Below are positions 7,659 to 43,246 of a DNA stretch of 64,000 bases, one piece after another. The stretch's first letter is position 1, and every line of letters begins with the position of its first letter. The stretch spans positions 1,302,001 through 1,366,000 of the forward strand of contig NC_013192.1 in the NCBI RefSeq assembly GCF_000023905.1, in the 5' to 3' direction. The notes beneath the pieces were generated by a model. That model saw only the letters and a list, made by a program, of their open reading frames with translations. It was not told the origin of the DNA and did no database searches. This DNA is from Leptotrichia buccalis C-1013-b. GTDB taxonomy: Bacteria; Fusobacteriota; Fusobacteriia; Fusobacteriales; Leptotrichiaceae. A program made the position numbers and the translations under genes.

Positions 7659-7977
7659 AAATTACACTCCGCAAAATTTCTTCCTTTATATCATCTTTGT
7701 ATTTCTGAACTTTCGGATTTTTAAATTTATATTCAAACATACTTTCATCAACTAAATCTACTTTTTTTTGAAAAATTTCTTCTAGTTTTTTATGTAAACT
7801 ACAAAAATTCTGATACATCCCTTTCTTAAATTCCATTTTTACAAGAATATCAATATCACTATCATTTGTATTAATATTTTTTGAAAAACTTCCAAAAAGA
7901 CCTAATTTTAAAATCGAATATTTCTCTTTATTAATCTCTTTTAGTTTTTTTAAAATCTCTTCTTTTCTTATATTCAT
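7651..7977 (-). CDS. mntA: MNT-type nucleotidyltransferase antitoxin
   Basis: A minimal nucleotidyltransferase of 108 residues. In characterised modules such proteins AMPylate the tyrosine of the RX4HXY motif of HepT and so neutralise it. The polymerase-beta-fold motif is clear: GLFGSFSKN at about residues 26-34 followed by DSDIDILV at about 39-46, supplying the G-S and D-x-D metal-binding residues; a third acidic strand follows near KVDLVDE. An AAAGGA site precedes the ATG at 7977, and the 3' end overlaps hepT by 8 bp, the usual antitoxin-first order. The function is inferred from family and context. Confidence 0.85.
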   Translation of the reverse strand: MNIRKEEILKKLKEINKEKYSILKLGLFGSFSKNINTNDSDIDILVKMEFKKGMYQNFCSLHKKLEEIFQKKVDLVDESMFEYKFKNPKVQKYKDDIKEEILRSVIYV

Positions 7978-8029
7978 CTTTTTGTCCTTTCTAAAAATTC
8001 AAAATTTAGTTTTATTGTGACATAATTTA

Positions 8030-8038
8030 TGGTATAAT
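8030..8038 (+). promoter_or_regulatory. Extended -10 promoter for the Phd/RelE module
   Basis: TGG followed by TATAAT (8033-8038) forms an extended -10 element 36 bp before the antitoxin ATG, with AAAGGAG at 8058-8064 as ribosome site. No good -35 is visible at 17 bp spacing, as expected for extended -10 promoters. Phd-family antitoxins usually autoregulate here, but I see no strong palindrome. Confidence 0.6.
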
Positions 8039-8073
8039 ATAGGTATAAATAATATGTAAAGGAGTGTATTACT

Positions 8074-8331
8074 ATGAAAATTATTCCTATTCGTGATTTA
8101 AAAAATACTGTTGAAATTGAAAAATACTGTTCCGAAGAACAAGGACCTGTATTTATAACTAAAAATGGTTATGGACGCCTAGTTGTAATGGATATTGAAT
8201 ATTATGAACGAACTATGCGTGAAATTGAAGAAGCAAAACTTCTGCTTGATGGAATAAAAGATGTTCAAAATAACAATATTTTAGACGGCAAAAATACTAT
8301 TAATGAATTAAGAGGTAAATATGGAATCTAA
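8074..8331 (+). CDS. Phd/YefM-family antitoxin
   Basis: An 85-residue type II antitoxin. The N-terminal DNA-binding fold carries the family signature: MKIIPIRDLKNTVEIEKYC, then GPVFITKNGYGRLVVMDIEYYE, where the KNGYGRLVVMD segment matches the Phd/YefM motif. The C-terminal tail (EEAKLLLDGIKD onwards) is the disordered region that wraps the toxin. It runs on the plus strand, against the surrounding his genes, and its 3' end overlaps the toxin gene by 11 bp. It is expected to bind the RelE-like partner and repress its own promoter. Confidence 0.88.
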   Translation: MKIIPIRDLKNTVEIEKYCSEEQGPVFITKNGYGRLVVMDIEYYERTMREIEEAKLLLDGIKDVQNNNILDGKNTINELRGKYGI

Positions 8332-8698: not shown

Positions 8699-9454
8699 TC
8701 AAATCCTCATTTCCACTCCATTATCCCTCAAATACCTTTTCAGCTCCATAATTTCCACTTCCTTAAAATGAAAAATCGAAGCTGCTAGTCCTGCATCAAT
8801 TCCTGGGATTTTAAATAATTCCTTAAAATGTTCCATATTTCCAGCTCCACCTGATGCAATTATCGGAATTGATAATTTTTTAGATAAGATTGACAATAAT
8901 TCTAAATCAAAGCCAGTTTTAACGCCATCTGTATCAATACTGTTCACAACAACTTCTCCAGCACCATTTTCCTGCCCTTGCACAAACCATTCAATCGCGT
9001 CAATTCCAGTATTTTCTCTGCCACCTTTTGCAAAAACTTTAAATTTACCGTCTACTCTTTTTACATCAACGGACAAAACTACACACTGATCTCCATATTT
9101 TTTTGCAGCTTCCTCAATTAATTTCGGATTTCTTATTGCACCTGAATTGACACTCACTTTATCTGCCCCCGCTTTTAGCACTCTGTCAAAATCATCTAGT
9201 GTATTTATCCCACCGCCAACAGTAAGCGGAATAAATATCTGACTTGCCACTTCCTTTAAAATATCAGTAAAAAGCCCTCTTTCCTCAACAGTTGCTGTAA
9301 TATCATAAAAAACAAGCTCATCTGCTCCTGACTTATTATAAAATTTTGCCAGCTCTACAGGACTGTCAACTTCTCTTATCCCAGTAAAATTAATACCTTT
9401 CACAACTTTTCCATTTCTCACATCCAAACAGGGAACAATTCTCTTTGCAAGCAT
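8699..9454 (-). CDS. hisF: Imidazole glycerol phosphate synthase, cyclase subunit
   Basis: HisF is the (beta-alpha)8 barrel that uses ammonia from HisH to convert PRFAR into imidazole glycerol phosphate and AICAR. The 251-residue length is typical. Signature motifs are RIVPCLDVRNGKVVKG at the start with the catalytic Asp, LTVGGGI, ADKVSVNS, VVLSVDVKRVDG, the second catalytic Asp in SIDTDGVKTGFD, and IASGGAGNMEHF. It follows hisA by 70 bp on the same strand. Its partner hisH lies 2.9 kb upstream, separated by hisA, an IS element and an exported-protein gene. Confidence 0.96.
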   Translation of the reverse strand: MLAKRIVPCLDVRNGKVVKGINFTGIREVDSPVELAKFYNKSGADELVFYDITATVEERGLFTDILKEVASQIFIPLTVGGGINTLDDFDRVLKAGADKVSVNSGAIRNPKLIEEAAKKYGDQCVVLSVDVKRVDGKFKVFAKGGRENTGIDAIEWFVQGQENGAGEVVVNSIDTDGVKTGFDLELLSILSKKLSIPIIASGGAGNMEHFKELFKIPGIDAGLAASIFHFKEVEIMELKRYLRDNGVEMRI

Positions 9455-9524
9455 TTTTATACCTACTTTCTTTTAATATACAATATCTAACATTTGCAAT
9501 TTCATTTAAACGATTTTTAAAATA

Positions 9525-10241
9525 TTATTTACTAACTTCCAACACTTCTTTCAAATCAAGATTTCCTGAATAGATTGCTTTTCCAACAATCGCTCCATAA
9601 ACTCCATTTTCATTAAGTTCTTTTATTTCATCTAAAAATGTAATTCCGCCAGAAGCTATAATATCCGATTTTACTATTTTTGATAATTTTTTATAAATTT
9701 CAAGATTTGTTCCATTTAGCATTCCATCTTTTGAAATGTCAGTATAAATTATTGTTTTTACATTTATATCCGATAATTTTTTGCAAAATTCAACTGAATT
9801 TAATTCAACTGTTTGTGTCCACCCTTTTACAGCAACTTTTTCATCTTTTGCATCTACAGAAACTGCAATTTTATCGCCATATTTTTTTACCATTTCTTTT
9901 AAAAATTCTTCATTTTCAACTGCAATCGTTCCCAAAATAACACGGTTTACTCCCAACTCAATATATTTTTTTATTCTTTCTTCGTCACGAATTCCACCGC
10001 CAACTTGAACAAAGAAATCACTTTTTTCAACCAGTTCTTTTATAACTTCATAATTTTTTGTATTTCCATCTTTTGCTCCATCCAAATCCACAATATGAAG
10101 ATTTTTTGAATTATTTTTATTAAAGAAATCCAAAACTTCAACAGGATTTTTAAAAAACACTTCCACTTGATTATAATCTCCCTGTTTCAGTCGCACTGCC
10201 TGACCGTTATGTAAGTCTATCGCTGGAAAAATCTCTATCAT
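9525..10241 (-). CDS. hisA: ProFAR isomerase (HisA)
   Basis: HisA is the (beta-alpha)8 barrel isomerase that converts ProFAR to PRFAR. The 238-residue protein has the expected motifs: IFPAIDLHNGQAVRLKQGDY at the start, IVDLDGAKDG, VQVGGGIRDEE, RVILGTIA, a YTDISKDGMLNG segment with the second catalytic Asp, and IIASGGI. An AAGGAG site precedes the ATG at 10241. The IS5-like element sits about 180 bp upstream, so any promoter for hisA and hisF must lie in that gap or in the IS end. Confidence 0.96.
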   Translation of the reverse strand: MIEIFPAIDLHNGQAVRLKQGDYNQVEVFFKNPVEVLDFFNKNNSKNLHIVDLDGAKDGNTKNYEVIKELVEKSDFFVQVGGGIRDEERIKKYIELGVNRVILGTIAVENEEFLKEMVKKYGDKIAVSVDAKDEKVAVKGWTQTVELNSVEFCKKLSDINVKTIIYTDISKDGMLNGTNLEIYKKLSKIVKSDIIASGGITFLDEIKELNENGVYGAIVGKAIYSGNLDLKEVLEVSK

Positions 10242-10424
10242 AATTTAATCTCCTTCAAATATTATATACTTTTTTATTTTATAACTCTATTTTTTTATGT
10301 ACTCCAAAATTTTTCAAAAAAGTTAGGTCATTACAAAATACAAAGGAAAAATCCACATGTTTGGAATATCTGCTCCAATAACCATACTCGAATTCTAACT
10401 TTGATAAAAAATCTCAAAATATTA

Positions 10425-10468
10425 GGGCGTGTCTGAAAACTCAAAATCAATGATATTTTTAATGATTA
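10425..10468. repeat. Terminal inverted repeat of the IS (hisA side)
   Basis: The 44 bp here are the exact reverse complement of 11326-11369; the match extends 3 bp further outward on each side only because both flanks read TTA when oriented outward to inward. The unusual length of the repeat suggests recent activity or a conserved transposase-binding region. Confidence 0.9.
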
Positions 10469-10475
10469 CTTAAAT

Positions 10476-10901
10476 TTATTTTATTAAAATTATTATGCAT
10501 CCTATATAAATAAAATTTATGAATGTGCTTGCCAGCTTATCATAGCGTGTCCCTATTCTGCGGAACTGTTTAAACTTATTGAAAAAACATTCCACAAGAT
10601 GTCTTTCCTTGTAGATATGGTAATCGCATTCCCATTTGTTTACTGCATTTGACTTCGGAGGTATTACACATTCTCCCCCGTGTTTTCTTATGTACTCCCG
10701 AACTTCCTTTGTTCCGTATGCCTTGTCTGCCAGTATGTTGCTGTCTTTTATGCTTAGCTGCGACAATATTTTAATTGCTTGCGTACTATCGTGAATCTGT
10801 CCTGCACTAAGTTTTATATACAGCGGATTTCCAAGTCCATCAACAACTGCATGGATCTTAGTTGTCCTTCCACCTGAGCTTCTCCTGATGTGCTGATTCA
10901 C
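10476..10901 (-). CDS. IS5-family transposase, ORF B (catalytic part)
   Basis: This frame encodes about 141 residues with the DDE transposase core: GGRTTKIHAVVDGLG (first Asp region), ILADKAYGTKEVREY (second Asp) and the terminal block ERHLVECFFNKFKQFRRIGTRYDK carrying the catalytic Glu. It opens at a GTG at 10901, 4 bp inside ORF A, but no independent ribosome site is evident. In related elements the two parts are joined by -1 frameshifting; here an A6G3 run at 10916-10924 is the probable slip site, and upstream codons in this frame (KDSEVNQH) join smoothly with ORF A. Confidence 0.88.
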   Translation of the reverse strand: MNQHIRRSSGGRTTKIHAVVDGLGNPLYIKLSAGQIHDSTQAIKILSQLSIKDSNILADKAYGTKEVREYIRKHGGECVIPPKSNAVNKWECDYHIYKERHLVECFFNKFKQFRRIGTRYDKLASTFINFIYIGCIIILIK

Positions 10902-11242
10902 TTCTGAATCTTTTGCCCTTTTTTAGCTCCTGCACTGCTCTGGTGGGCTTTAACTACTGTAGAGTCAATGCTCAAGTTCTCATAGTCGGCATCTTCCCTT
11001 AAATGCTCAAATATTTTAAGCAGAGTCCCCTCGTCACGCCATTTGCAGAAACGAGAATAGACCGTCTTCCATGAACCGAAACGTTCAGGAAGGTCTCTCC
11101 AAGGTGCACCGCTGCAGGCAATCCATAGCACGGCATTAAACATCAGGCGTAAATCCTTGCCTGGACGTCCTGTTTTAGCTTTGGGAAACATATGCTTTAT
11201 TTTATTCCATTGTTCATCTGATATTTCATATCTTCTTTGCAT
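10898..11242 (-). CDS. IS5-family transposase, ORF A (N-terminal part)
   Basis: About 114 residues with the DUF4096-like N-terminal domain of IS5/IS427 transposases: RRYEISDEQWNKI, GRPGKDLRLMFNAVLWI, GAPWRDLPERFGSWKTVYSR, and the start of the catalytic domain at LSIDSTVVKAH, which holds the first Asp. An AGGAGG site precedes the ATG at 11242. The frame ends just after the A6G3 run at 10916-10924, so a full transposase requires a -1 shift into ORF B. Confidence 0.88.
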   Translation of the reverse strand: MQRRYEISDEQWNKIKHMFPKAKTGRPGKDLRLMFNAVLWIACSGAPWRDLPERFGSWKTVYSRFCKWRDEGTLLKIFEHLREDADYENLSIDSTVVKAHQSSAGAKKGQKIQK

Positions 11243-11325
11243 GATAGAAGCCTCCTGTGCTTTTCTTTTATTGTATCAGACTGAGAGCAATGTTTCAACT
11301 CATTGATTTTGAGTATATTATTTGA

Positions 11326-11369
11326 TAATCATTAAAAATATCATTGATTTTGAGTTTTCAGACACGCCC
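11326..11369. repeat. Terminal inverted repeat of the IS (upstream side)
   Basis: This is the 44-bp partner of 10425-10468. Its last base (G on the minus strand) together with the flanking TA forms the TAG stop codon of the upstream gene. Confidence 0.9.
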
Positions 11370-12223
11370 TAATCAAACATTCTTATTTTATCCAGATTTT
11401 TTTGAAATATTTTCTTATTATTATAAAAATCAGTTTTATTCGCCTTTGCCAGCTCCGATTTTATATACCAGTTTTGATACCTGTTGTAGTACAATATTTC
11501 TTCACTTGGCTTATTTTTTCCTTCAAAATTTTCATAATAAAAATCAATTGCATCCTGCGTACGATTCTCATTTAAATAAAAACTTATCGCAAACCATCCC
11601 ATCGTCAATTTGTATGCCCACGCCTGCTCATCAGAAATACGTGATTCTTCCGTTTTTGTTTTATCATCGCACATCTTCATAATAGAATTTAAACTTGCAA
11701 GTGCCGCTTTTTCATCGTTTTTCATAACATTCCAGATTGCATCTCTTCCTATCGTATATGTTACAGCAATTCTAGTGATTAGATAATCAGGGTATTCCCT
11801 TTTAAGTTTTTCATAATTTTTATCAAACGCTGCTGTATCTCCTTTGTTAGAATAATACATATTTGAAAAAAATAATTTTGACACTTCATAAGGATTGTAT
11901 TTTTCATACCGTTTCAAATTATTTAATTTTTCAGCCTCACTTTTTCCAAGTGCATTATAAATATTTATCAAATTTTCTGATAATACAAAATTCTTCTCAT
12001 TCTTTTTCAGCAATTCTTCAATTTTTAATGCCAATTTTTTTACTTTTTCCCTATCAGGTTCACTTACTACATTAGGTATTTCTTTATCCAGTTCTATTGT
12101 TTTTACTATTATTTCCTGAGAAACTCCTAATTTTGACAAATCCTGCCTTATCATTTCGCTTCGACTTTTAGCATTCATATTAACTGCTGCAAAAATACTC
12201 ATCAATAATATTATCTTCTTCAT
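11369..12223 (-). CDS. Exported hypothetical protein, helical repeat type
   Basis: A 284-residue protein that I do not recognise. The ATG at 12223 has an AGAAAGAGG site and starts a classic signal peptide (MKKIILLMSIFAAVNMNAKS), so I prefer it to an upstream start at 12265 without one. The mature part is almost entirely helical and aromatic-rich, with TPR-like helix pairs (for example YNPYEVSKLFFSNMYYSNKG and AWAYKLTMGWFAISFYLNE), suggesting a periplasmic binding scaffold. The stop codon is TA from the target site plus G from the IS end; without the IS the flanking bases read TAA, so the protein is unchanged by the insertion. It lies between hisH and hisA. Confidence 0.7.
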   Translation of the reverse strand: MKKIILLMSIFAAVNMNAKSRSEMIRQDLSKLGVSQEIIVKTIELDKEIPNVVSEPDREKVKKLALKIEELLKKNEKNFVLSENLINIYNALGKSEAEKLNNLKRYEKYNPYEVSKLFFSNMYYSNKGDTAAFDKNYEKLKREYPDYLITRIAVTYTIGRDAIWNVMKNDEKAALASLNSIMKMCDDKTKTEESRISDEQAWAYKLTMGWFAISFYLNENRTQDAIDFYYENFEGKNKPSEEILYYNRYQNWYIKSELAKANKTDFYNNKKIFQKNLDKIRMFD

Positions 12224-12308
12224 AAATACCTCTTTCTCAATTAAAAAATAAATTATCAAAACCAACCTAAAAATGAATAAATTAAGTAAAATAATTACAA
12301 TTTTACTT

Positions 12309-12938
12309 TTATTTTACTAATTCACCCCAGTTTTTCAATAGCTTTAATCCAGTATCTCCACTTTTTTCAGGATGAAACTGCATTCCATAGACATTTTCAT
12401 TTTTTACAATTCCAGGTATTTTTGTTCCGTACTCTGAATATGTAACAATGTTTTTCATATCAGTTTTTGCAAAATATGAATGAACATAATAAACATATTC
12501 ATTATTATCTACATCTTTTAAAATTTTATCATCCTTAAATCTCTCATTTATAATTAAACTATTCCATCCCATATGAGGTATTTTCAAATCAAAGTTTTCA
12601 GGAATATATTTTTTTATCTCCTCAACAGTTCCATTTATAAGCCCAAGTCCTTCATATTCACCATATTCATAACTTTTCTCAAAAAGCATCTGCATACCAA
12701 GACAAATTCCCAAAAAAGGCTTCCCTTTTTTCGCTTCACTTATCAAAGTCTCTTTTAGCCCATATTTTTCCAAATTCCCAATAGCATCTCTAAAAGCCCC
12801 GACTCCTGGCAATATTATCCCCTTAGCATTTTTTATCTCTTCAATATCATTAGTCAGTTTCGTATTCAGTCCGACATAGTTTAAAGAAGAAAGTAAGGAA
12901 AAAAGATTTCCTACTCCATAATCAATCACTGCTATCAT
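12309..12938 (-). CDS. hisH: Imidazole glycerol phosphate synthase, glutamine amidotransferase subunit
   Basis: HisH hydrolyses glutamine and passes ammonia to HisF. The 209-residue class I glutamine amidotransferase shows the triad clearly: the nucleophile Cys in FLGICLGMQMLF (about residue 79), and His and Glu in YGMQFHPEKSG near the C-terminus. The start IAVIDYGVGNLFSL and the oxyanion segment GIILPGVGAF are also diagnostic. AAAGGA precedes the ATG at 12938. A terminator lies about 140 bp upstream, so hisH probably has its own promoter instead of being read through from hisB. Confidence 0.95.
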   Translation of the reverse strand: MIAVIDYGVGNLFSLLSSLNYVGLNTKLTNDIEEIKNAKGIILPGVGAFRDAIGNLEKYGLKETLISEAKKGKPFLGICLGMQMLFEKSYEYGEYEGLGLINGTVEEIKKYIPENFDLKIPHMGWNSLIINERFKDDKILKDVDNNEYVYYVHSYFAKTDMKNIVTYSEYGTKIPGIVKNENVYGMQFHPEKSGDTGLKLLKNWGELVK

Positions 12939-13074
12939 AAGTAAAAAAATCCTTTCTATTTTATTGTTTGTTCATTTGTTATTTTTAATAATTTATTTAA
13001 ATACATTATACAATGTTATTTGAGAAAAAACAATAAATTTTCATCTTATGAACATATTGCAATTTATGAAACAA

Positions 13075-13098
13075 AAAAAATGCCTTATTATAGACATT
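13075..13098 (-). terminator. Rho-independent terminator upstream of hisH
   Basis: On the minus strand AATGTCT (13092-13098) pairs with AGGCATT (13079-13085), with one G-T pair, and is followed by a run of eight T. It would end transcripts coming from the Cas10 relic and the accessory island, separating hisB from hisH transcriptionally. Confidence 0.75.
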
Positions 13099-13115
13099 TT
13101 AATTTTAAAATATTA

Positions 13116-13144
13116 GTTTCCGTCTCCCCTCGGAGTATATAAAC
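13116..13144. repeat. Single CRISPR-repeat-like sequence
   Basis: A 29-bp segment begins GTTTCCGTCTCC, holds a short palindrome CTCC-CCTC-GGAG and ends ATATAAAC. A 5' GTTT, central GC-rich palindrome and 3' AAAC are the usual form of type I-B and type III CRISPR repeats, and its G+C content stands out from the surroundings. There is only one copy in the window, so this is not an array; it is at most a remnant. It lies about 60 bp downstream of the Cas10 relic. Confidence 0.4.
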
Positions 13145-13204
13145 CTACCTGCAATTAACCCCTTATTTTATGCTATGTTATTTGACTATTTGCGTAAGAC
13201 TTGC

Positions 13205-13544
13205 TTAAATTTTCAGTTTTCTTTTCCAAAAAGGTAAAAAATATGTTCTAAGTCCTATTTTACAGTATCGTGGCAATTTTATATGTTTATATGAAATAAT
13301 AATCTTCTCTCCTTCTTCTTTTATTCTTTCTACCCCTGATGCTATATTATCAGCTTCATAAACAATATATACTAAAGAATTATCATCTAATTTATTTAAT
13401 TTATTATTTTCTTCCATTTCTTCATTATAATGATACTTTATCATATCATAAATTTCTTTATATTTTTCTACATCTAGCAATTCTTATTTTTCCAATATCA
13501 TACAGCAAAGCTCCTATTTGAAGATTAATTAATTTCTCATCCAT
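13205..13544 (-). pseudogene. Relic of cas10/csm1 (type III-A CRISPR)
   Basis: Two overlapping frames on the minus strand match successive parts of the Cas10/Csm1 N-terminal HD region. From ATG 13544 the first reads MDEKLINLQIGALLYDIGKI, where functional proteins have LLHDIGK. The second, from 13480, reads IYDMIKYHYNEEM (normally YHH) followed by DDNSLVYIVYEADNIASGVER, a conserved Csm1 element. The frames are joined by a frameshift with loss of intervening sequence; both catalytic-type His positions are Tyr; the Palm/GGDD and C-terminal domains are missing. The last 30 or so residues are unrecognised. The family call rests on motif recall and should be confirmed. Confidence 0.6.
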
Positions 13545-13642
13545 ACTTTATTTTCTCCAACTTTCAAATTTATTTTTTTATTTATATCTATAAAATACAT
13601 TCTTTTTTCTGCTTCATAAAATCAATTATTTTTCACCATTTT

Positions 13643-15155
13643 TCACTCCACTTTAACTTTTTTCCCATAAAATGCCATTCCCATATACACAATTTCTTTT
13701 ACTCCTCTTTCTTTTAAAAGCACAGGATATTTCTTAATTTCAATTTGATTCAATGCTTCTTTTGATCTCTCTTCAAGTTCTTCTTCTGTTTTAGCCAGTT
13801 TAAACTCAAAAATATATCCTAAATTTCTTTTATTTATCGGCTCCAAAGCCAAATCGTTTCTTCCATACCCTGTTTCATTATTTGATAAAACTGTATATTC
13901 GCTGTCAAGATACAACATCATTCCTAAAATTAACGTATGATATGGTTTTTCTGTTTTAGAAGTATCATAATAGCTCATTGACACTAAAAATATTTCATTC
14001 AAAATTTCTTCAAATTTTTCAATTTCAAAATTTTTAAATGCTCTTATCATTTCTTTAAATCTGCTTGAACCTCCCAAATTATGGACAAACATATCTTTAA
14101 AAAACGTTTTTACTTCATAATTTGGCAATTTTAGGGCATATTCATTCATAGCCACTTTTTCCTCAACTGTCAAATATCCTCCAAACAAAAGTAATTGCCA
14201 TACTTCTTGCGGATCTTTCAACTTATCCATATTTGAGGAAGCTATAACAGTCTGTTCTGTCGTTCCGTTATTAAATAAATCTTTCAGCTCGTTAAACAGC
14301 TCTTTGTCTGAATTTTCTATTGCAGAATGTATAAGACTGTTATCCGACGTGTTTATCCAATATACATTAATCTCTTTTCGCTTCAAATAATTAAGAATGT
14401 TCCACGGATTGTATACTTGAACATTACCAAATTTATAGTCGTTATACTATTTTCTAACTTCTTCAATATTTTGACTTAATTCATAATATTCCAACGCCCT
14501 GTTTCACTTCATTATCCACTAATCCAAAATAGTCAGAAAAATCACTGTCTAAAACAGTGTAAACAGATAAATTATTAAGTCCAGAAAAAATCCCTTCTTT
14601 TACTACTCTAAGTATTCCAGTTACAACAGCGAACTGCAAATATTCATTATCCTTTAACGCATTTGAGTAAAAACTTTTAAAAAATCTTCATGCCTTTTCA
14701 TAATATCCCTCATTCCACGCACTTGTCATGGGAGTATCGTATTCATTTATTAGAATAATTACTTTTTTATCATACAAATCTGAAACAAGATTTTTAATAT
14801 TTGAAAAGCTATCTTCCCAACTTTCTGCTTCAGCATTTTTCATACTTATAAAAATCACTGGATTTTGTCCCTGATGTTCTATATACTCACTTTTAGAAAT
14901 ACACAGGTTCTCAAATAACTTTTTATTTTCTTCAGCATTTTCCAAATCAAAAAAGTATTTCAGCATTGACAAATTTAGGGTTTTTCCAAATCTTCTGGGC
15001 CTTGTAAATAATTTAAATTCTGATAAATCCTCTATTATTTCTTCTATAAATTTCATTTTGTCAATATAATAAGCATTTCATGTTATTATTTCCTTAAAAT
15101 CGGATTTTCCTATTGCTAGTCCTTTTTTCTTTTTTTTCATATTTTTTTCTTTCAT
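13643..15155 (-). pseudogene. Broken AAA-ATPase/PD-(D/E)XK nuclease gene (DUF1703 type)
   Basis: The intact family couples an N-terminal AAA-ATPase-like domain with a C-terminal PD-(D/E)XK nuclease-like domain. From ATG 15155 the pieces read: LAIGKSDFKEIIT, TGA at 15078-15080, then YYIDKMKFIEEI and the Walker-A-like RPRRFGKTLNLSM, IILINEYDTP, TGA at 14688-14690, FFKSFYSNALKDNEYLQFAV, an extra G at about 14496-14500 (GGG for GG) causing a frameshift, TAG at 14447-14449 in place of the Trp before YNDYKFG, then NPWNILNYL and the nuclease-like end (NDLALEPINKRNLGYIFEFKL). At least four lesions show the gene is dead. A fairly intact C-terminal 247 codons remain open. Confidence 0.85.
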
Positions 15156-15241
15156 AATTAATCCCTTTCTTTCCTTTTTTATTAATTGAACCATATCAAA
15201 AAATTAAACTGTTGCAATTCAGAAAATTATTATAAAATATA

Positions 15242-17527
15242 TTATTTTTCATTTTTATTCTTCTTGAAAAAGTCAAAGAATGTCTTTTTGTGTTCTAATT
15301 CTTTTGGAACAGGCACTCCTATCCAATCGTGAAATTCTTTTATCTTTATTTCAATAATATCGGAAGAATTATTATCATTTTTACACTTCTGCGACAATGC
15401 ATTCAAATATTTTATTGAAGGAAGAACTTTTGTGCCGTATCTATTGCTTTGAGCATCTTCACTATCCAGACTTTTCAATTTAAACAAATAAACAGATTTG
15501 TCTTCTTTTGGCTTAAAATCCCTGTAATTATATTCATACAGTTTTCTCCATAAAGATTGATTATTTTCTACAGTATCATCGTATCTCGTTTCAGGAAACC
15601 AAGCGGGAACTTCCATTTGAGCAATTTCAAAATATTCTTTAAAAATCTCACGGCTCCAGTAAAGAAAATCTATTAATCCTGTCGAAGAATGAAGCGAATA
15701 ATTTTTCCAGTTCAAGTTATCATCTGTCAATTTTTCTGCAAATCTAATTACAAAATCTTGAAAAAGAGTATCATTAACCATTTCAAGCACTTCTGTATAT
15801 GCTTTTACAGATTTTTTCTTGAGTTCTGTGTCAAAAACTTTGTCATTTTTTACATAATAGGATCTTCTTTGCGAACGTTGAGGCAACGAATATTCCAACG
15901 CATTTGTAGTTCCAATAAAGCATGGGGTAAAATCATAATTGGAAGTAGAAAGATTAGAAACATTGACAATCAGATTGTTTCCTCTGTCCTTATTTGAAAA
16001 AAATTCCTCGTCTATTTCATCAATTAAAATTGGAGCGACATTATTTTCACTCATCCATAATTGAATTTGAGTTATTGTATCAGCTTTTTTCGTTCTTCCT
16101 GTTGGAATAATGTTGTTATATAAAATAGGTTTTGATTTGGAAAGCCCCAGCATTTTTTGTAATATTTGCAGTAAATTACTTTTACCTGAACCCGCTGTCC
16201 CTCCTATAAAAAGAAACTGAGGAACATCCAATTTTTCAGAATCAGATTCAAGCTTAAATCTTATATCCTGAATAAAAGGCGAAGTAAAGGCATACAAAAT
16301 AATCTCAAGTATTCTTGAGCCGTAATTATCATTGTAATCAATAACATATTTTTTGTAATTATCAATTAATTTTATAATGCTTTCAACAGAGTTTTTTATT
16401 TCTTCCTTCCCAGCCTTCTGTCCAAAAGGTTTAGTGCCGCCATTTTCTTCAATATATAAGCCCGAACGGCCAAAACCACGATCCGTGTCTTTTGAAAACA
16501 GCAGTTCTCTTTCTGGAGTTGCTTGATTTAATCTCGCAGCAATTTTGACTTCCAATTTAGGCTTTATCTTTTTGGCAAATGTTTCAGGAGTTACAATCAA
16601 ACTTTCCTTCTTTTTAGCTTGTTTTGAAATAGTATTGACTGACAATTCGTAAGCAAATTTTTCAATTTCCACAGCTTCCTTTTGCTCATTTTCAATTATT
16701 CTATGTTTTTCATCAATTGTCTTTATCTCTTCAATTATAGGCAACGCAACCTCATCTTCTTGCTTGACGATAACTTCATTCAAATTTTTAATGACATCTT
16801 TTGAAATATCTATTTGTAATTTCGCACTTTCGTCATTGGTAAATTTTACAGAAAACATTTCTTCTTGATTTTTATCAATATTTTCATTCATAATTTTAAT
16901 CTTACTTTCTGCTTTTTTCTTTATTGCAGAAGTAATAAAATCTGTACAAGTCAAACTTATTTCGTCAAAATATTTTTCAAATTGATAGAATAACTGTGAA
17001 TTGTCAAAAATTATAATATTTTCAAACTGATTTCTTTTATTTGAAAAAGCCTGAAAAGATAAATTGGCTGACCCCAAAATCAGCCTTGTTTCAGAATCAT
17101 TTCTCAAAAGATAAAATTTACTATGAATTGTTGAATTTATCGGCACTCGTAATTTCCATTTCTCTTTAACAAAATTTTCCTGATTTTCCCTCGAAAGATT
17201 CTCAAAAAACTTAATCTGCTCCTTTTTTATAATCCGTTTCTGACTTTCAATCAGATTTCGCGTTTCATTTTTTAAAGCCATTATCCCTCTTGCCTGAACA
17301 TCAGTATCCTGTATCCCAATAATCAAGTCAACACTTCTAAATGGAGTTAAATATTTATTTAAAAAACTTTCCTCAGCAGAAAATGTAACTGCCTTTATCT
17401 CATAAAACCTATTGCTGTCAAAAATTTCTTCAATCGTCAAATTTACTCTTTCATGATTTAAAATAGTAAACAATGTATTTTTTTCTTTACTATTTTCATT
17501 AATATTTGTCGTTTCTTTTTCTTCCAT
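15242..17527 (-). CDS. Phospholipase D-like / AAA+ ATPase fusion protein
   Basis: A 761-residue cytosolic protein with two recognisable parts. Residues about 40-195 form a phospholipase D-like domain with a single HxK motif (IHSKFYLL, H135 and K137) followed by ILGSANLSFQAF (G152-N155), as in PLD nucleases that dimerise. A linker of about 230 charged residues follows. Residues about 435-600 form a P-loop domain: Walker A IGGTAGSGKSNLL (442-450), Walker B PILIDEIDEEFF (about 499-510), sensor-1 FIGTTNALE (N542) and arginines in SQRRSYY as candidate fingers. A further 160 residues follow. AAGGGAGA precedes the ATG. It is intact beside dead genes. I infer a role in DNA or nucleoprotein processing, perhaps defence; no precise family name is claimed. 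Confidence 0.8.
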   Translation of the reverse strand: MEEKETTNINENSKEKNTLFTILNHERVNLTIEEIFDSNRFYEIKAVTFSAEESFLNKYLTPFRSVDLIIGIQDTDVQARGIMALKNETRNLIESQKRIIKKEQIKFFENLSRENQENFVKEKWKLRVPINSTIHSKFYLLRNDSETRLILGSANLSFQAFSNKRNQFENIIIFDNSQLFYQFEKYFDEISLTCTDFITSAIKKKAESKIKIMNENIDKNQEEMFSVKFTNDESAKLQIDISKDVIKNLNEVIVKQEDEVALPIIEEIKTIDEKHRIIENEQKEAVEIEKFAYELSVNTISKQAKKKESLIVTPETFAKKIKPKLEVKIAARLNQATPERELLFSKDTDRGFGRSGLYIEENGGTKPFGQKAGKEEIKNSVESIIKLIDNYKKYVIDYNDNYGSRILEIILYAFTSPFIQDIRFKLESDSEKLDVPQFLFIGGTAGSGKSNLLQILQKMLGLSKSKPILYNNIIPTGRTKKADTITQIQLWMSENNVAPILIDEIDEEFFSNKDRGNNLIVNVSNLSTSNYDFTPCFIGTTNALEYSLPQRSQRRSYYVKNDKVFDTELKKKSVKAYTEVLEMVNDTLFQDFVIRFAEKLTDDNLNWKNYSLHSSTGLIDFLYWSREIFKEYFEIAQMEVPAWFPETRYDDTVENNQSLWRKLYEYNYRDFKPKEDKSVYLFKLKSLDSEDAQSNRYGTKVLPSIKYLNALSQKCKNDNNSSDIIEIKIKEFHDWIGVPVPKELEHKKTFFDFFKKNKNEK

Positions 17528-17617
17528 ATTTATAGTTTCTCCCTTTTGATTTAACCATTTTCCATTTTCAATAAGAATTTCGATTGTTTCTTGTATAAAT
17601 TAAAAACTTCTTTCCTA

Positions 17618-18208
17618 TTAAACCAAAACCCCTTTAGTCGAAGGAATCTCATCCTTATACTTTTCATCAATACTTACAGCCTCTGCCAAAGCTCTAGCAA
17701 CTCCTTTAAAAATCGACTCAATTATATGATGCGAATTTGTCCCAGCCATATTCTTTATATGCAATGTCGCATTCAAATGCCGTGTAAAGCCAATGAAAAA
17801 CTCTTCCACCAATTCTGTGTCAAAAGTCCCAACTTTTTCAGTCGGAATATTCACATCAAAATTCAAAAAATATCTCCCGCTTAAATCAACAGCAACTAAC
17901 GTCAGAGCCTCATCCATCGGCAAAAGAAAGTTCCCATACCTTCTCACACCCTTCAAGTCCTCTAACGCCTCATAAAAACATTTTCCCAATGCAATTCCAA
18001 TATCCTCCGTACTATGGTGATCATCCACCTGCGTATCCCCATCACAATAAACCTTCAAATCAAATCTCCCATGCTTCGCAAACAAGTCAAGCATATGGTC
18101 CAAAAATCCAACCCCTGTATTATTTTCATATTTCCCAGTTCCATCAATATTTAATTCAACTTTTATTTTTGTTTCAAATGTATTTCTTTCAATTTTAGAT
18201 TTTCTCAT
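17618..18208 (-). CDS. hisB: Imidazoleglycerol-phosphate dehydratase
   Basis: HisB dehydrates imidazole glycerol phosphate to imidazole acetol phosphate. The 196-residue monofunctional enzyme shows the paired metal-binding His motifs: GVGFLDHMLDLFAKHG, DDHHSTEDIGIALG, GFTRHLNATLHI and NSHHIIESIFKGVARAL. No phosphatase domain is attached, consistent with the separate PHP-type hisJ. AAAGGA precedes the ATG at 18208. The PLD-ATPase gene follows 90 bp downstream, and the Lon-like gene and an opposing small gene separate it from hisC. Confidence 0.97.
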   Translation of the reverse strand: MRKSKIERNTFETKIKVELNIDGTGKYENNTGVGFLDHMLDLFAKHGRFDLKVYCDGDTQVDDHHSTEDIGIALGKCFYEALEDLKGVRRYGNFLLPMDEALTLVAVDLSGRYFLNFDVNIPTEKVGTFDTELVEEFFIGFTRHLNATLHIKNMAGTNSHHIIESIFKGVARALAEAVSIDEKYKDEIPSTKGVLV

Positions 18209-18296
18209 AACTTCATCCTTTCGTATACCTTTAATTATAAATAGTATAATCTATTTTTTTCTCTTTTTCAAGATTGACTAAAAAACAAGAAATTTG

Positions 18297-18325
18297 TTTT
18301 GAAATATTAAAAATCGTGTTATAAT
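18297..18325 (+). promoter_or_regulatory. Promoter for the orphan gene at 18369
   Basis: TTTTGA (18297-18302) and TATAAT (18320-18325) are spaced by 17 bp; TG at 18317-18318 makes an extended -10. The promoter fires on the plus strand away from hisB, and an AGGAGGTG ribosome site follows. Confidence 0.65.
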
Positions 18326-18341
18326 TTAGTAGATAATTTAA

Positions 18342-18746
<405 letters not shown>

Positions 18747-18763
18747 TCTAATCAGTATTCTGA

Positions 18764-18783
18764 CAAGGGGAATTACCCCCTTG
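18764..18783. terminator. Hairpin between converging genes
   Basis: CAAGGGG (18764-18770) pairs with CCCCTTG (18777-18783) around a 6-base loop. It sits 17 bp after the plus-strand orphan gene and just beyond the 3' end of the Lon-like gene. There is no T-run on either side, so termination strength is uncertain. Confidence 0.55.
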
Positions 18784-18799
18784 CTTCATAATATTTGTT

Positions 18800-20425
18800 T
18801 TATATATTTTTTAATATTTCAAAAACTTCTTTATAATCGCTGACCAAGTGCACTTTGATGTCTTCTAATATTTTCTTATCAATTCTTAATAGCTGTGCTT
18901 CATTTTCCTTAGGAATTATAAAGTTTCTTATTCCTGCTTTGTAGCCACCTTCAATTTTTGAAGTAACTCCGCCTATTGCTAAAATTTCACCACTAAGAGT
19001 AATTTCACCTGTAAAACCTGTATCTTGCCTAATTTCCAATTTTGTCAATGCAGAAAGAATCGCTGTTGTTATAGCTATTCCAGCAGAAGGCCCATCTTTT
19101 GGAATACTGTTGTCATCAAAATGAATATGAATGTCTTGATTATAATAAAAATCTTTATTTTTTATGCCAAAAGTATCACAATTTGCTCTAATGTATGTTA
19201 TTGCAACTTCTATGCCCTCTTTTATTACAGAAGATAAATTTCCAGTAACTTTTTTCTCGCCTTTTCCTTCTATTACAACAGCTTCGATTGGAAGTATACG
19301 ACCACCAAGAGAATTTACTCCCAATCCCATAACTTTTCCAATTCGGCTTTTATTTCTATCAGGAATCATAATGTTATTAGTTGGTATTTTATTTGCTGTT
19401 ATATATTCTTCAATATTTTCAAGGGTAATCTTTTTAAATTTCTTTTTTTCTAATTTATTTTTTATTATTTTCCCATAAATTTTTTTTAAAATTAATTTTA
19501 GTTTTCTAACCCCGTCTTCTAATGTGTAATTTTCAATAATATATTTTAACACATCTTCGGTCAAATTAAAATTTTTAGCACCAACTTGTAAATTTAATTC
19601 AGGAATTATATAATTTTGAGCTATAATTATTTTTTCTTCAACACTATAGCTGTCAAGGGTAATAACTTCCATTCTACTAAGCAGGGGTTTAGAAATTTTT
19701 TCTAAATAATTTGCTGTAGCGATGAACATTATATTTGATAAATCATATTCTATTTCCAAATATTCATCTCTAAATCTTTTATTATCATCAGGATCTAATA
19801 TTTCCAATAAAATTCCTTGAATATCTCCATTTGTTTTATTTTCTGAAACTTTGTCAATTTCGTCTAACAAAATTACAGGATTATCGCATCTTAATTTTGC
19901 TAAAGCCTTTATAATTCTTCCTGGCATAGCAGAAGTATAAGATTTTGAGAGTCCATTCAATTCAAATCCTGAATTAATTCCACTTATTGAAATTTTTTCA
20001 AATTTTCTTCCCAATGCTTCTGCAATTGATAAAACAAGAGAGGTTTTACCAATACCAGCACCGCCTGTCAGACACAGAATAGTAGGATTTTTTTTACCTT
20101 TGCTATATTTTTTTATATGCTCTAATAATACTAGATTTTCTATAATTGTTTCTTTTACTCTGTCCATTCCATAATGATTTTTATTTAAAAGCTCTCTCAA
20201 TTTAGTAATATTTAATTTTGCTTCTTCTGTATTTTTTCCCCATTGCAATTCGTCCAAAATTAATCTTAGATATTTTTCACATTTCACTTTTCGCGAGGGA
20301 TCTAAATTTTTCTCTTCTAATTCATTGATATACTGTTCTACATTTAATTTTGCCTCAAGACTAATATTCAAATTTTTTAACTGTTCTCTTTTTTTCTCAA
20401 TTTCTTTTTTTATATCCGACATCAT
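18800..20425 (-). CDS. Lon-type AAA+ protease lacking the N-terminal substrate domain
   Basis: About 541 residues against roughly 770-800 for classical Lon. The LAN substrate-binding domain is missing, while the helical bundle before the ATPase remains (DELQWGKN, NKNHYGMDRVKE). The AAA+ module has Walker A LTGGAGIGKTSL, Walker B ILLDEIDKV and FIATANYLEKI. The protease domain has catalytic Ser in PKDGPSAGIAI and Lys in GGVTSKIEGGY, spaced 43 residues apart as in E. coli Lon (S679/K722), so it should be active. ATG 20425 follows AAAGG; a GTG at 20434 is the alternative. It separates hisC from hisB. A dedicated role distinct from housekeeping Lon is inferred. Confidence 0.85.
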   Translation of the reverse strand: MMSDIKKEIEKKREQLKNLNISLEAKLNVEQYINELEEKNLDPSRKVKCEKYLRLILDELQWGKNTEEAKLNITKLRELLNKNHYGMDRVKETIIENLVLLEHIKKYSKGKKNPTILCLTGGAGIGKTSLVLSIAEALGRKFEKISISGINSGFELNGLSKSYTSAMPGRIIKALAKLRCDNPVILLDEIDKVSENKTNGDIQGILLEILDPDDNKRFRDEYLEIEYDLSNIMFIATANYLEKISKPLLSRMEVITLDSYSVEEKIIIAQNYIIPELNLQVGAKNFNLTEDVLKYIIENYTLEDGVRKLKLILKKIYGKIIKNKLEKKKFKKITLENIEEYITANKIPTNNIMIPDRNKSRIGKVMGLGVNSLGGRILPIEAVVIEGKGEKKVTGNLSSVIKEGIEVAITYIRANCDTFGIKNKDFYYNQDIHIHFDDNSIPKDGPSAGIAITTAILSALTKLEIRQDTGFTGEITLSGEILAIGGVTSKIEGGYKAGIRNFIIPKENEAQLLRIDKKILEDIKVHLVSDYKEVFEILKNI

Positions 20426-20503
20426 CCTTAACACCTTTCATACGATTAGAATAGCAAAACTTCTATCAAAATAAAAAACAAAATTTAATCTTTATTCTAA
20501 ATT

Positions 20504-21577
20504 CTAAATTATTTCTTCCAATTTCTCAATAAAAATCCCCATTTCCTCATCCGTACCAATCGTAATCCTCAAATAATTATCAATTCTATCTTTTGCAAAA
20601 TATCTTACTAAAACTCCATTTTCTTTTAGCTGTTTATACAAATCGCCTGCGAAAACTTTGTTGTGAGAAATAAAAATAAAATTAGCACTTGAATTTAATA
20701 CATTAAATCTTAATTTTTTCAATTTTTCAACCGTTTTTTCTCTAGTCTGAATAATTTTAGCATTAGTTTTTTCAAAATACTCATCATCCTTAAACGACTC
20801 GATTCCAGCTTCAATTGAAATTCTGTCGATTGTGTATGAGTTAAATGAAAATTTCAGTCTATTCAGCCCTTCAATTATATTTTCAGAGCCAAGTGCATAT
20901 CCAAGCCGTATTCCCGCCATAAAACGTGACTTGGAAAATGTCTGAACTACAAGAACATTATCGTATTTATTTATTAATTTTACAGCACTTTCTGCTCCAA
21001 AGTCAACATACGCCTCGTCAATAATAACTAGCTGGTTTGGATTGTTTTTTACTATTTCTTCAATTTCATCCAATTTTAAAGCAATCGAAGTTGGTGCATT
21101 CGGATTTGCGATAATTATATGCCCATCCAAGCCAAAATATTTTTGAATTTCAATTTCAAAACTATCATTTAAAGGAATTTTGACTTCCTTTACATTAAAT
21201 AAATCGGCATAAACTGGATAAAAACTGTATGTAATATCTGGATAATAAACTTTATCTCCCGCATTAAAAAATGTCATAAAAATAAATGCCAGAACTTCAT
21301 CCGATCCATTTCCAATAAACACTTGTTTATGTGTAACTTTATCGTTTATTTTATTAGAAAAATATTCAGCAATAACTTTTCCAAGCTCCATTACATCAGG
21401 ATCTGGATACAATTTCAAATCTTCCAAATTCATAGATTTTATTTTTTCTATAACTTTTGATGATGGCGGATAAGGATTTTCATTTGTATTAAGTTTAATA
21501 TATTTTTTGTCTTTCGGCTGTTCTCCCGGCGTATAAGGCTCTATTTCTTTTATTTTATCATTCCAAAATTTACTCAT
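20504..21577 (-). CDS. hisC: Histidinol-phosphate aminotransferase
   Basis: HisC is the PLP-dependent fold-type I enzyme that transaminates imidazole acetol phosphate. The 357-residue protein has the family motifs LNTNENPYPPS, NGSDEVLAFIF, IIANPNAPTS, VIIDEAYVDFG, the PLP-lysine block QTFSKSRFMAGIRLGY and the C-terminal LRITIGTDEE. AAGGAGG precedes the ATG at 21577. It is separated from hisD by two accessory genes and from hisB by the Lon-like gene, but strand and order within the pathway are kept. Confidence 0.94.
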   Translation of the reverse strand: MSKFWNDKIKEIEPYTPGEQPKDKKYIKLNTNENPYPPSSKVIEKIKSMNLEDLKLYPDPDVMELGKVIAEYFSNKINDKVTHKQVFIGNGSDEVLAFIFMTFFNAGDKVYYPDITYSFYPVYADLFNVKEVKIPLNDSFEIEIQKYFGLDGHIIIANPNAPTSIALKLDEIEEIVKNNPNQLVIIDEAYVDFGAESAVKLINKYDNVLVVQTFSKSRFMAGIRLGYALGSENIIEGLNRLKFSFNSYTIDRISIEAGIESFKDDEYFEKTNAKIIQTREKTVEKLKKLRFNVLNSSANFIFISHNKVFAGDLYKQLKENGVLVRYFAKDRIDNYLRITIGTDEEMGIFIEKLEEII

Positions 21578-21605
21578 TTTATAATTTCCTCCTTAAGCAC
21601 AATTT

Positions 21606-22271
21606 TTACTTGAATTCTGACAAATCATATAATTTATCCTTTGTTTCCCATTTTCCATTTACTTTTCTAAACTCAAGCACATTACTTTCTTCAGTAGTTT
21701 CACTTATTTGTTTTCTAAGCTCTTCACCTAAATACTTTAAGATTTTTTCTCTTTTTTGATTATTTAGATCGCTAATGTGTTCCAAATTATTTATTTCTTC
21801 ATCTGTCACTCCTGCTTTTTTTGCTGCTTTTTCCACATCTTCATCGCCGCCAGAAAGATTATTAAAATCAGGTAATATTTCAATTATTTCCACTTTAGCA
21901 ATATTTTTACCTGTAAAAGAAATAGATTTTGGAACATATTTACTTTTAGATAAGCCAGTTATCATTTCATTTGCCATAACTTCAGACATTTTATCAAAAA
22001 ATTCTATATCTTTAATATAGTAATTATTGTTATTATGATATCGATTTTTCATATTTCTTAAAAACATAATTCTTGATTTTTCCAACATAATTTTTTTATC
22101 ACGAGTTTCATAATCATTAATCATCTTATTAACAGTATTTTCAATTTCTTTACTATCCCTATCAACTTCACTTTGTGAAATTTTAACACCACTTTTCACA
22201 AAAACTTCATAATTCTGTTGTGCCATTCCCAATGTTCCCAAAATGAACAATCCTAGTAGTATTTTTTTCAT
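21606..22271 (-). CDS. Exported hypothetical protein
   Basis: About 221 residues, not recognised. A strong GGAGG site sits 6 bp before the ATG at 22271, which begins a signal peptide (MKKILLGLFILGTLGMAQQ); an in-frame TTG further upstream at 22283 is unlikely. The mature part is charged and helical (SEVDRDSKEIENTVNKMIND, FFDKMSEVMANEMITGL), followed by a lipocalin- or DUF-like strand region ISFTGKNIAKVEI and a C-terminal EFRKVNGKWETKDKLY that resembles the end of DUF4878-type lumazine-fold proteins. It probably acts in the periplasm. It sits between the DUF4143 ATPase and hisC. Confidence 0.65.
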   Translation of the reverse strand: MKKILLGLFILGTLGMAQQNYEVFVKSGVKISQSEVDRDSKEIENTVNKMINDYETRDKKIMLEKSRIMFLRNMKNRYHNNNNYYIKDIEFFDKMSEVMANEMITGLSKSKYVPKSISFTGKNIAKVEIIEILPDFNNLSGGDEDVEKAAKKAGVTDEEINNLEHISDLNNQKREKILKYLGEELRKQISETTEESNVLEFRKVNGKWETKDKLYDLSEFK

Positions 22272-42997: not shown

Positions 42998-43148
42998 GAG
43001 CGTGTCTGAAAATTTTAAAAATGAGGTATTTTTAATAAATTTTTCCAAAATCAAAAATTATAAACACTGATTTTATCGTGATTTGTATAATTTATACAAT
43101 AAAAAAAATATTAAAAATAACATAGATTTTGGGATTTCAGACATAGCC
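42998..43148. mobile_element. Miniature inverted-repeat element related to the IS5-type element
   Basis: 151 bp flanked by TA on both sides. The left end GAGCGTGTCTGAAAATTTT and the right end, read in reverse, GGCTATGTCTGAAATCCC, both match the IS terminal repeat GGGCGTGTCTGAAAACTC, and similarity continues about 40 bp inward (TATTTTTAAT). No transposase is encoded, so it would depend on the full-length IS for movement. Confidence 0.75.
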
Positions 43149-43246
43149 TAATTCTAATTTATTTTCAATAATATTATAACAAAAAATATTATTTTATACA
43201 ACTAAAATCATGAAGAATTGAAAGTTTGTCCTATAAAAATAAAAAA

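What the first reader, a model, noticed from the sequence alone, without database searches (positions are those of the whole stretch)
13205..13544. Decayed Cas10/Csm1 N-terminus between hisH and hisB
Two consecutive frames carry pieces of the Cas10 HD region: LLYDIGKI in place of LLHDIGK, KYHYNEE in place of a YHH motif, and YIVYEADNIASGVER, a conserved Csm1 stretch. A frameshift and an internal loss join them, both His positions are Tyr, and the polymerase-like Palm domains are gone. No other cas gene remains. It suggests that a type III-A CRISPR locus once occupied this site.
Basis: partly seen in the sequence, partly recalled or inferred. Interest (0 to 1): 0.6.

Follow-up and report, generated by a model that had tools for sequence, protein, structure and literature searches.

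The report
Relic of a lost CRISPR locus
Between two histidine-synthesis genes of the mouth bacterium Leptotrichia buccalis lie the broken ends of a type III-A CRISPR immune locus whose middle has been deleted; a close relative still has the whole locus at the same spot, so this is an ordinary but unusually clear gene relic.

Summary
The minus strand carries the first about 20 codons of csm1 (cas10), a 55-bp deletion that shifts the frame, and about 58 further csm1 codons; both HD-region histidines are now tyrosine (CAT to TAT). Family searches name only Csm1/Cas10. L. buccalis (G000, 2,465,610 bp) shares both outer borders; one deletion of about 9.3 kb joins early csm1 to the last codons of cas2. 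The ORF 13205-13480 is thus a csm1 piece plus read-through of cas2 tail and leader. A second relic of the same cas2-leader-array module sits near dapA (G000 about 1.432 Mb). The genome keeps I-B and III-D-like loci (VI-A per the literature). Decayed cas loci are a known kind; low interest.

The parts
12309..12938 (-). hisH, neighbour of the lost locus on its array side
   Evidence: ORF; 92.8% protein identity to G001 HisH that follows the intact array
12939..13118 (-). downstream border of the array up to hisH, shared with G001
   Evidence: 85.9% DNA identity over 199 bp running to hisH; 93.8% over 11370-13136
13119..13136 (-). core of the single surviving CRISPR repeat (ACTCCGAGGGGAGACGGA)
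   Evidence: pattern scan of the own genome: 3 sites in all, 0 with the reversed control; G001 and G012 arrays carry ACTCCGAAAGGAGACGGA repeats
13137..13287 (-). leader-like DNA between cas2 and the array
   Evidence: part of the 84.2% match to L014 19657-19805 of G001; 93% to the second relic at 1431980-1432147
13288..13307 (-). last codons of cas2 (approximate limits)
   Evidence: alignment to G001 cas2 end
13308..13483 (-). csm1 piece 2: KYHY and YEADNIASGVER region of the HD domain; its far end is joined to cas2
   Evidence: 84.4% DNA identity to G001 csm1; TIGR02578, PADLOC and PDB matches
13484..13544 (-). csm1 piece 1: start codon to LLYDIGKI, then a 55-bp loss that shifts the frame
   Evidence: 90% identity over 20 aa to G001 Csm1; alignment
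13664..15173 (-). broken AAA-ATPase/PD-(D/E)XK nuclease gene (562 aa and intact in G001)
   Evidence: tblastn segments in two pieces; PF08011 7.2e-21 on the C-terminal piece; about 127-bp loss near 14770
15242..17527 (-). intact 761-aa PLD-domain/P-loop protein gene, accessory gene shared with G001
   Evidence: PF13091 3.2e-10; 98.4% identity to G001
17618..18208 (-). hisB, neighbour on the csm1 side
   Evidence: ORF; 99.5% identity to G001

Best explanation
The feature is the two ends of a type III-A (Csm) CRISPR-Cas locus that stood between the AAA-nuclease gene and hisH in the ancestor shared with L. hofstadii. In L. buccalis a deletion of about 9.3 kb fused early csm1 to the last codons of cas2, removing the Cas10 Palm domains, csm2-csm5, cas6, csm6, cas1 and nearly all of cas2; the array shrank to one repeat. 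A 55-bp deletion and two His-to-Tyr changes further broke the HD domain, and the neighbouring AAA-nuclease gene broke too. It does nothing now as an immune system. Shown: homology, shared borders, breakpoints, intact copy in a relative. Inferred: that the locus was once active, and the order of the events.
For: Csm1/Cas10 matches; intact III-A operon at the same place in G001 with all nine cas genes named by NCBIfam and a 4-repeat array; window blocks 13485-14774, 13320-13495, 13152-13307 and 11370-13136 match G001 in the same order and orientation with only internal stretches missing; both Tyr codons are changes on the L. buccalis branch, since G001 and G012 both have His there; only one repeat at the site and no long array using it elsewhere.
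Against: The TIGR02578 score (23.9 bits) is far below the curated cut-off of 170 for a whole Csm1, as expected of a fragment. Substitution counts do not prove loss of constraint: over 67 codons the L. buccalis branch has 5 synonymous and 6 amino-acid changes, the G001 branch 4 and 4, too few to decide. Seven of nine inspected hisB-hisH sites have no csm trace, so the locus may have been a short-lived arrival in one lineage.
Confidence: 0.97

Rival explanations
1. A csm1/cas2 fragment from another place was carried in by a mobile element or recombination, and no complete locus ever stood here.
For: A second cas2-leader-array relic, 93% alike, exists near dapA; csm loci occupy other sites in G012 and G006, so the module moves.
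Against: Left border (AAA-nuclease end to csm1 start, 91% over 111 bp) and right border (array end to hisH, 86% over 199 bp) are both shared with the intact locus of G001 at this site.
Confidence: 0.02
2. The ORF 13205-13480 is a living small protein made of a Cas10 HD remnant and a new tail, with some new role.
For: The ORF is open over 91-92 codons, and constraint is not excluded by the substitution counts.
Against: The native csm1 start is cut off by the frameshift; both HD histidines are gone; the tail is cas2 end and leader read through; in the other 12 congeners searched the match is either absent or covers only the Csm1 part within a full Csm1, apart from one weak 26% match.
Confidence: 0.01

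Closest known systems
   Same: Same repeat family, same site between the hisB side and hisH, same flanking PLD and AAA-nuclease genes, same orientation of csm1 and cas2 ends
   Different: There complete; here only csm1 start, cas2 tail, leader and one repeat
   Same: Homologous csm operon and repeats
   Different: Lies at another place, between ORFs that I read as gltX and ligA (no family search); its cas1 is itself broken
Degraded type III-A loci (CRISPR2) of Streptococcus thermophilus (PMC6951406, passages seen)
   Different: Other phylum, and more of the locus remains

Membership tests
Csm1/Cas10 (TIGR02578) | Sequence homology to Csm1 | tested here: met
   E 1.5e-5 to TIGR02578, only family listed, over profile positions 44-88 of 753; PADLOC Cas10a 3e-10
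Csm1/Cas10 (TIGR02578) | Curated cut-off for a complete Csm1 (170 bits) | tested here: not met
   23.9 bits
Csm1/Cas10 (TIGR02578) | HD-domain histidines (LLHD and YHH motifs; motif names recalled) | tested here: not met
   CAT to TAT at both; His in G001 and G012
Csm1/Cas10 (TIGR02578) | Palm/polymerase-like domains | tested here: not met
   Sequence jumps from csm1 to cas2 end; no further csm1 match
Type III-A CRISPR-Cas locus | csm2-csm5, cas6, csm6, cas1, cas2 at the locus | tested here: not met
   tblastn with G001 proteins finds only Csm1 pieces in the window region 9001-21700; cas2 tail by DNA only
Type III-A CRISPR-Cas locus | CRISPR array with at least two repeats | tested here: not met
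   One repeat at the site; two more at 1.432 Mb
Relic of a type III-A locus | Both borders shared with an intact locus at the same site in a relative | tested here: met

The most novel reading that the evidence does not exclude
The surviving leader and repeat still serve as a landing site for spacers through the Cas1/Cas2 of the remaining CRISPR systems of this genome, or the fused ORF has been put to a new use.
Probability: 0.02. Interest if true: 0.5.

Novelty: new member of a known kind. Interest (0 to 1): 0.2.

Why it matters
It adds L. buccalis, source of the widely used Cas13a, to the Leptotrichia species that once held a III-A-Lep1 system, and shows its loss by one large internal deletion while I-B and III-D-like loci (and VI-A, per the literature) remain. 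It is a clean before/after pair for CRISPR locus turnover at the hisB-hisH site. The published survey lists only I-B, III-D and VI-A for this strain (PMC6914741, passages of Table 1 seen).

Tried and rejected
Searching for a better non-Cas10 family: none (the Pfam RepA_N match has E 0.077 and 13.4 bits against a cut-off of 30). A second intact Csm1 in the own genome: TIGR02578 rings only at the relic and at a 528-codon ORF that also appears in the congeners and which I read as ribonuclease Y, an HD protein (recalled identity). A DNA match at G000 2412706-2412766 (L004) and a weak protein match at 1278101-1278226 (E 0.216) were not followed. HisH scan of genome contigs to get named relatives: 80 loci, none of them Leptotrichia by title, so useless here. 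G007 short Csm1 match: lies in a 196-aa ORF behind a pyrG-like ORF, read as an unrelated HD protein (ORF list, no family search). Selection test on the csm1 pieces: inconclusive. Spacer of the second relic: no exact match to its 28-base core in viral contigs.

A paper search for Leptotrichia + CRISPR + III-A + csm1 gave one review (listing only); one for CRISPR + cas10 + pseudogene + remnant + deletion + type III-A gave one paper, passages read. I found no mention of this relic in the passages seen of PMC6914741 (the words degenerat and pseudogen occur 0 times) or of PMC3035221; neither paper was read whole.

Full report
Observation. On the minus strand, 13544-13485 encodes MDEKLINLQIGALLYDIGKI with its own ATG, and the ORF 13480-13205 continues in another frame with ELLDVEKYKEIYDMIKYHYNEE and SLVYIVYEADNIASGVER. 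The ORF matches Csm1/Cas10: TIGR02578 at 1.5e-5 (the only NCBIfam family up to E 10), PADLOC Cas10a at 3e-10, and 10 of 11 listed PDB chains are Cas10/Csm1, best 1.4e-5. Only residues up to about 59 of the ORF take part in these Cas10 matches.

Which genome. The window lies in a single 2,465,610-bp contig, the length published for L. buccalis C-1013-b (PMC3035221 passages; PMC6914741 Table 1 passages). By the same means G001 (contig 2,548,198) is L. hofstadii JCM16775 and G012 (2,335,974) Leptotrichia sp. JMUB3936. These names rest on exact length, not on a label.

The intact counterpart. Of 13 genomes of the genus searched with the ORF, 3 match at E <= 0.01: own, G001 and G012, the latter two inside full Csm1 ORFs of about 895 aa (G012 has a further weak match, E 0.0028). 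With the family TIGR02578, 4 of 13 exceed the cut-off (G001, G006, G009, G012). In G001 the order is hisB, PLD-type 761-aa gene, AAA-ATPase/PD-(D/E)XK 562-aa gene, csm1, csm2, csm3, csm4, csm5, cas6, csm6, cas1, cas2, an array of four repeats, hisH. NCBIfam names all nine cas genes; Cas6 scored below its cut-off, 44.7 against 58.65 bits, the other eight above theirs.

Anatomy of the loss. Aligned to G001, the window keeps, in the same order and orientation: 17538-14766 (96.5%), 14774-13485 (86.0%, after a loss of about 127 bp in the AAA-nuclease gene), 13495-13320 (84.4%, csm1 after a 55-bp loss), 13307-13152 (84.2%, cas2 end and leader), and 13136-11370 (93.8%, array end, hisH and the next gene). 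Between csm1 and cas2 about 9.3 kb of the G001 locus is absent. The junction reads GAAGGAGAGAAGATTATTATTT; csm1 in G001 has GAAGGAGATAAGA and cas2 GAAGATTATTATTT, so a short AGAAGA-like stretch is shared at the join; the exact base cannot be fixed because the csm1 side has diverged. The tail of the ORF, IIISYKHIKLPRYCK..., is cas2 end and leader read through.

HD residues. G001 reads LLHDVGK and KYHHNEE, G012 LLHDIGK and KYHHNEE; the window has Tyr at both places, each by CAT to TAT on its own branch. On 67 comparable codons the L. buccalis branch has 5 synonymous and 6 replacement changes against 4 and 4 on the G001 branch, too few to show relaxed constraint; the case for a dead gene rests on the frameshift and the deletions.

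Site survey. HisB was found in 12 of 13 congeners, own genome included (G002 has none). hisB and hisH were seen on the same stretch in 9 of 12: the window and G001 plus G003, G005, G006, G008, G009, G011 and G012; in G004, G007 and G010 hisH was not on the stretch fetched. Of the 9, one has the intact locus (G001), one the relic (window), and 7 no csm; G005, G009, G011 and G012 have the PLD and AAA-nuclease genes followed directly by hisH, and G003 keeps only a 44-bp trace of the nuclease gene end. So csm was probably inserted between nuclease gene and hisH in the L. buccalis/L. hofstadii line (inference), though clean loss elsewhere is not excluded.

Second relic and other systems. A stretch at G000 1431980-1432147 is 93% identical to the window's cas2-end/leader/repeat; before it lies a broken cas2 (89% DNA identity to G001 over about 255 bp) and after it two repeats with one spacer, beside an ORF that I read as dapA. 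The repeat core occurs three times in the genome in all, so no long array uses it. The genome retains a I-B locus with a long array (Cas8b 2.1e-118) and a type III locus that PADLOC matches to III-A/III-D Csm3 and III-D Cas7 and whose 641-aa ORF carries the Cas10 second Palm domain; the literature lists I-B, III-D and VI-A and no III-A for this strain. VI-A was not looked for here.

Verdict. It is a dead relic, a known kind of thing, documented here unusually completely.

Noticed in passing
window 10425-11370: IS4/5-family element (two transposase ORFs, PF13340 1.7e-27 and PF01609 2.8e-19) with clean ends between hisA and the next gene; G001 has the empty site.
   Followed up: partly
window 43016-43150 and L015 8379-8509: A dispersed repeat of about 131 bp: over 20 of the listed matches lie in this genome. 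It ends in TTTCAGACA(C/T)AGCCTA, like the end of the IS element above, so it may be a non-autonomous relative (MITE).
   Followed up: no
G000:C1 about 1431730-1432260 (L015 about 7730-8260): Second relic of the cas2-leader-array module: broken cas2, leader, two repeats, one spacer.
   Followed up: partly
window 15242-17527: 761-aa PLD-domain/P-loop protein kept at hisB-hisH in several congeners; only a weak defence match (ZacB 5.3e-6).
   Followed up: partly
G005:C1:1851033-1851620 and 1854378-1854965: hisB occurs twice within 4 kb in this relative.
   Followed up: no
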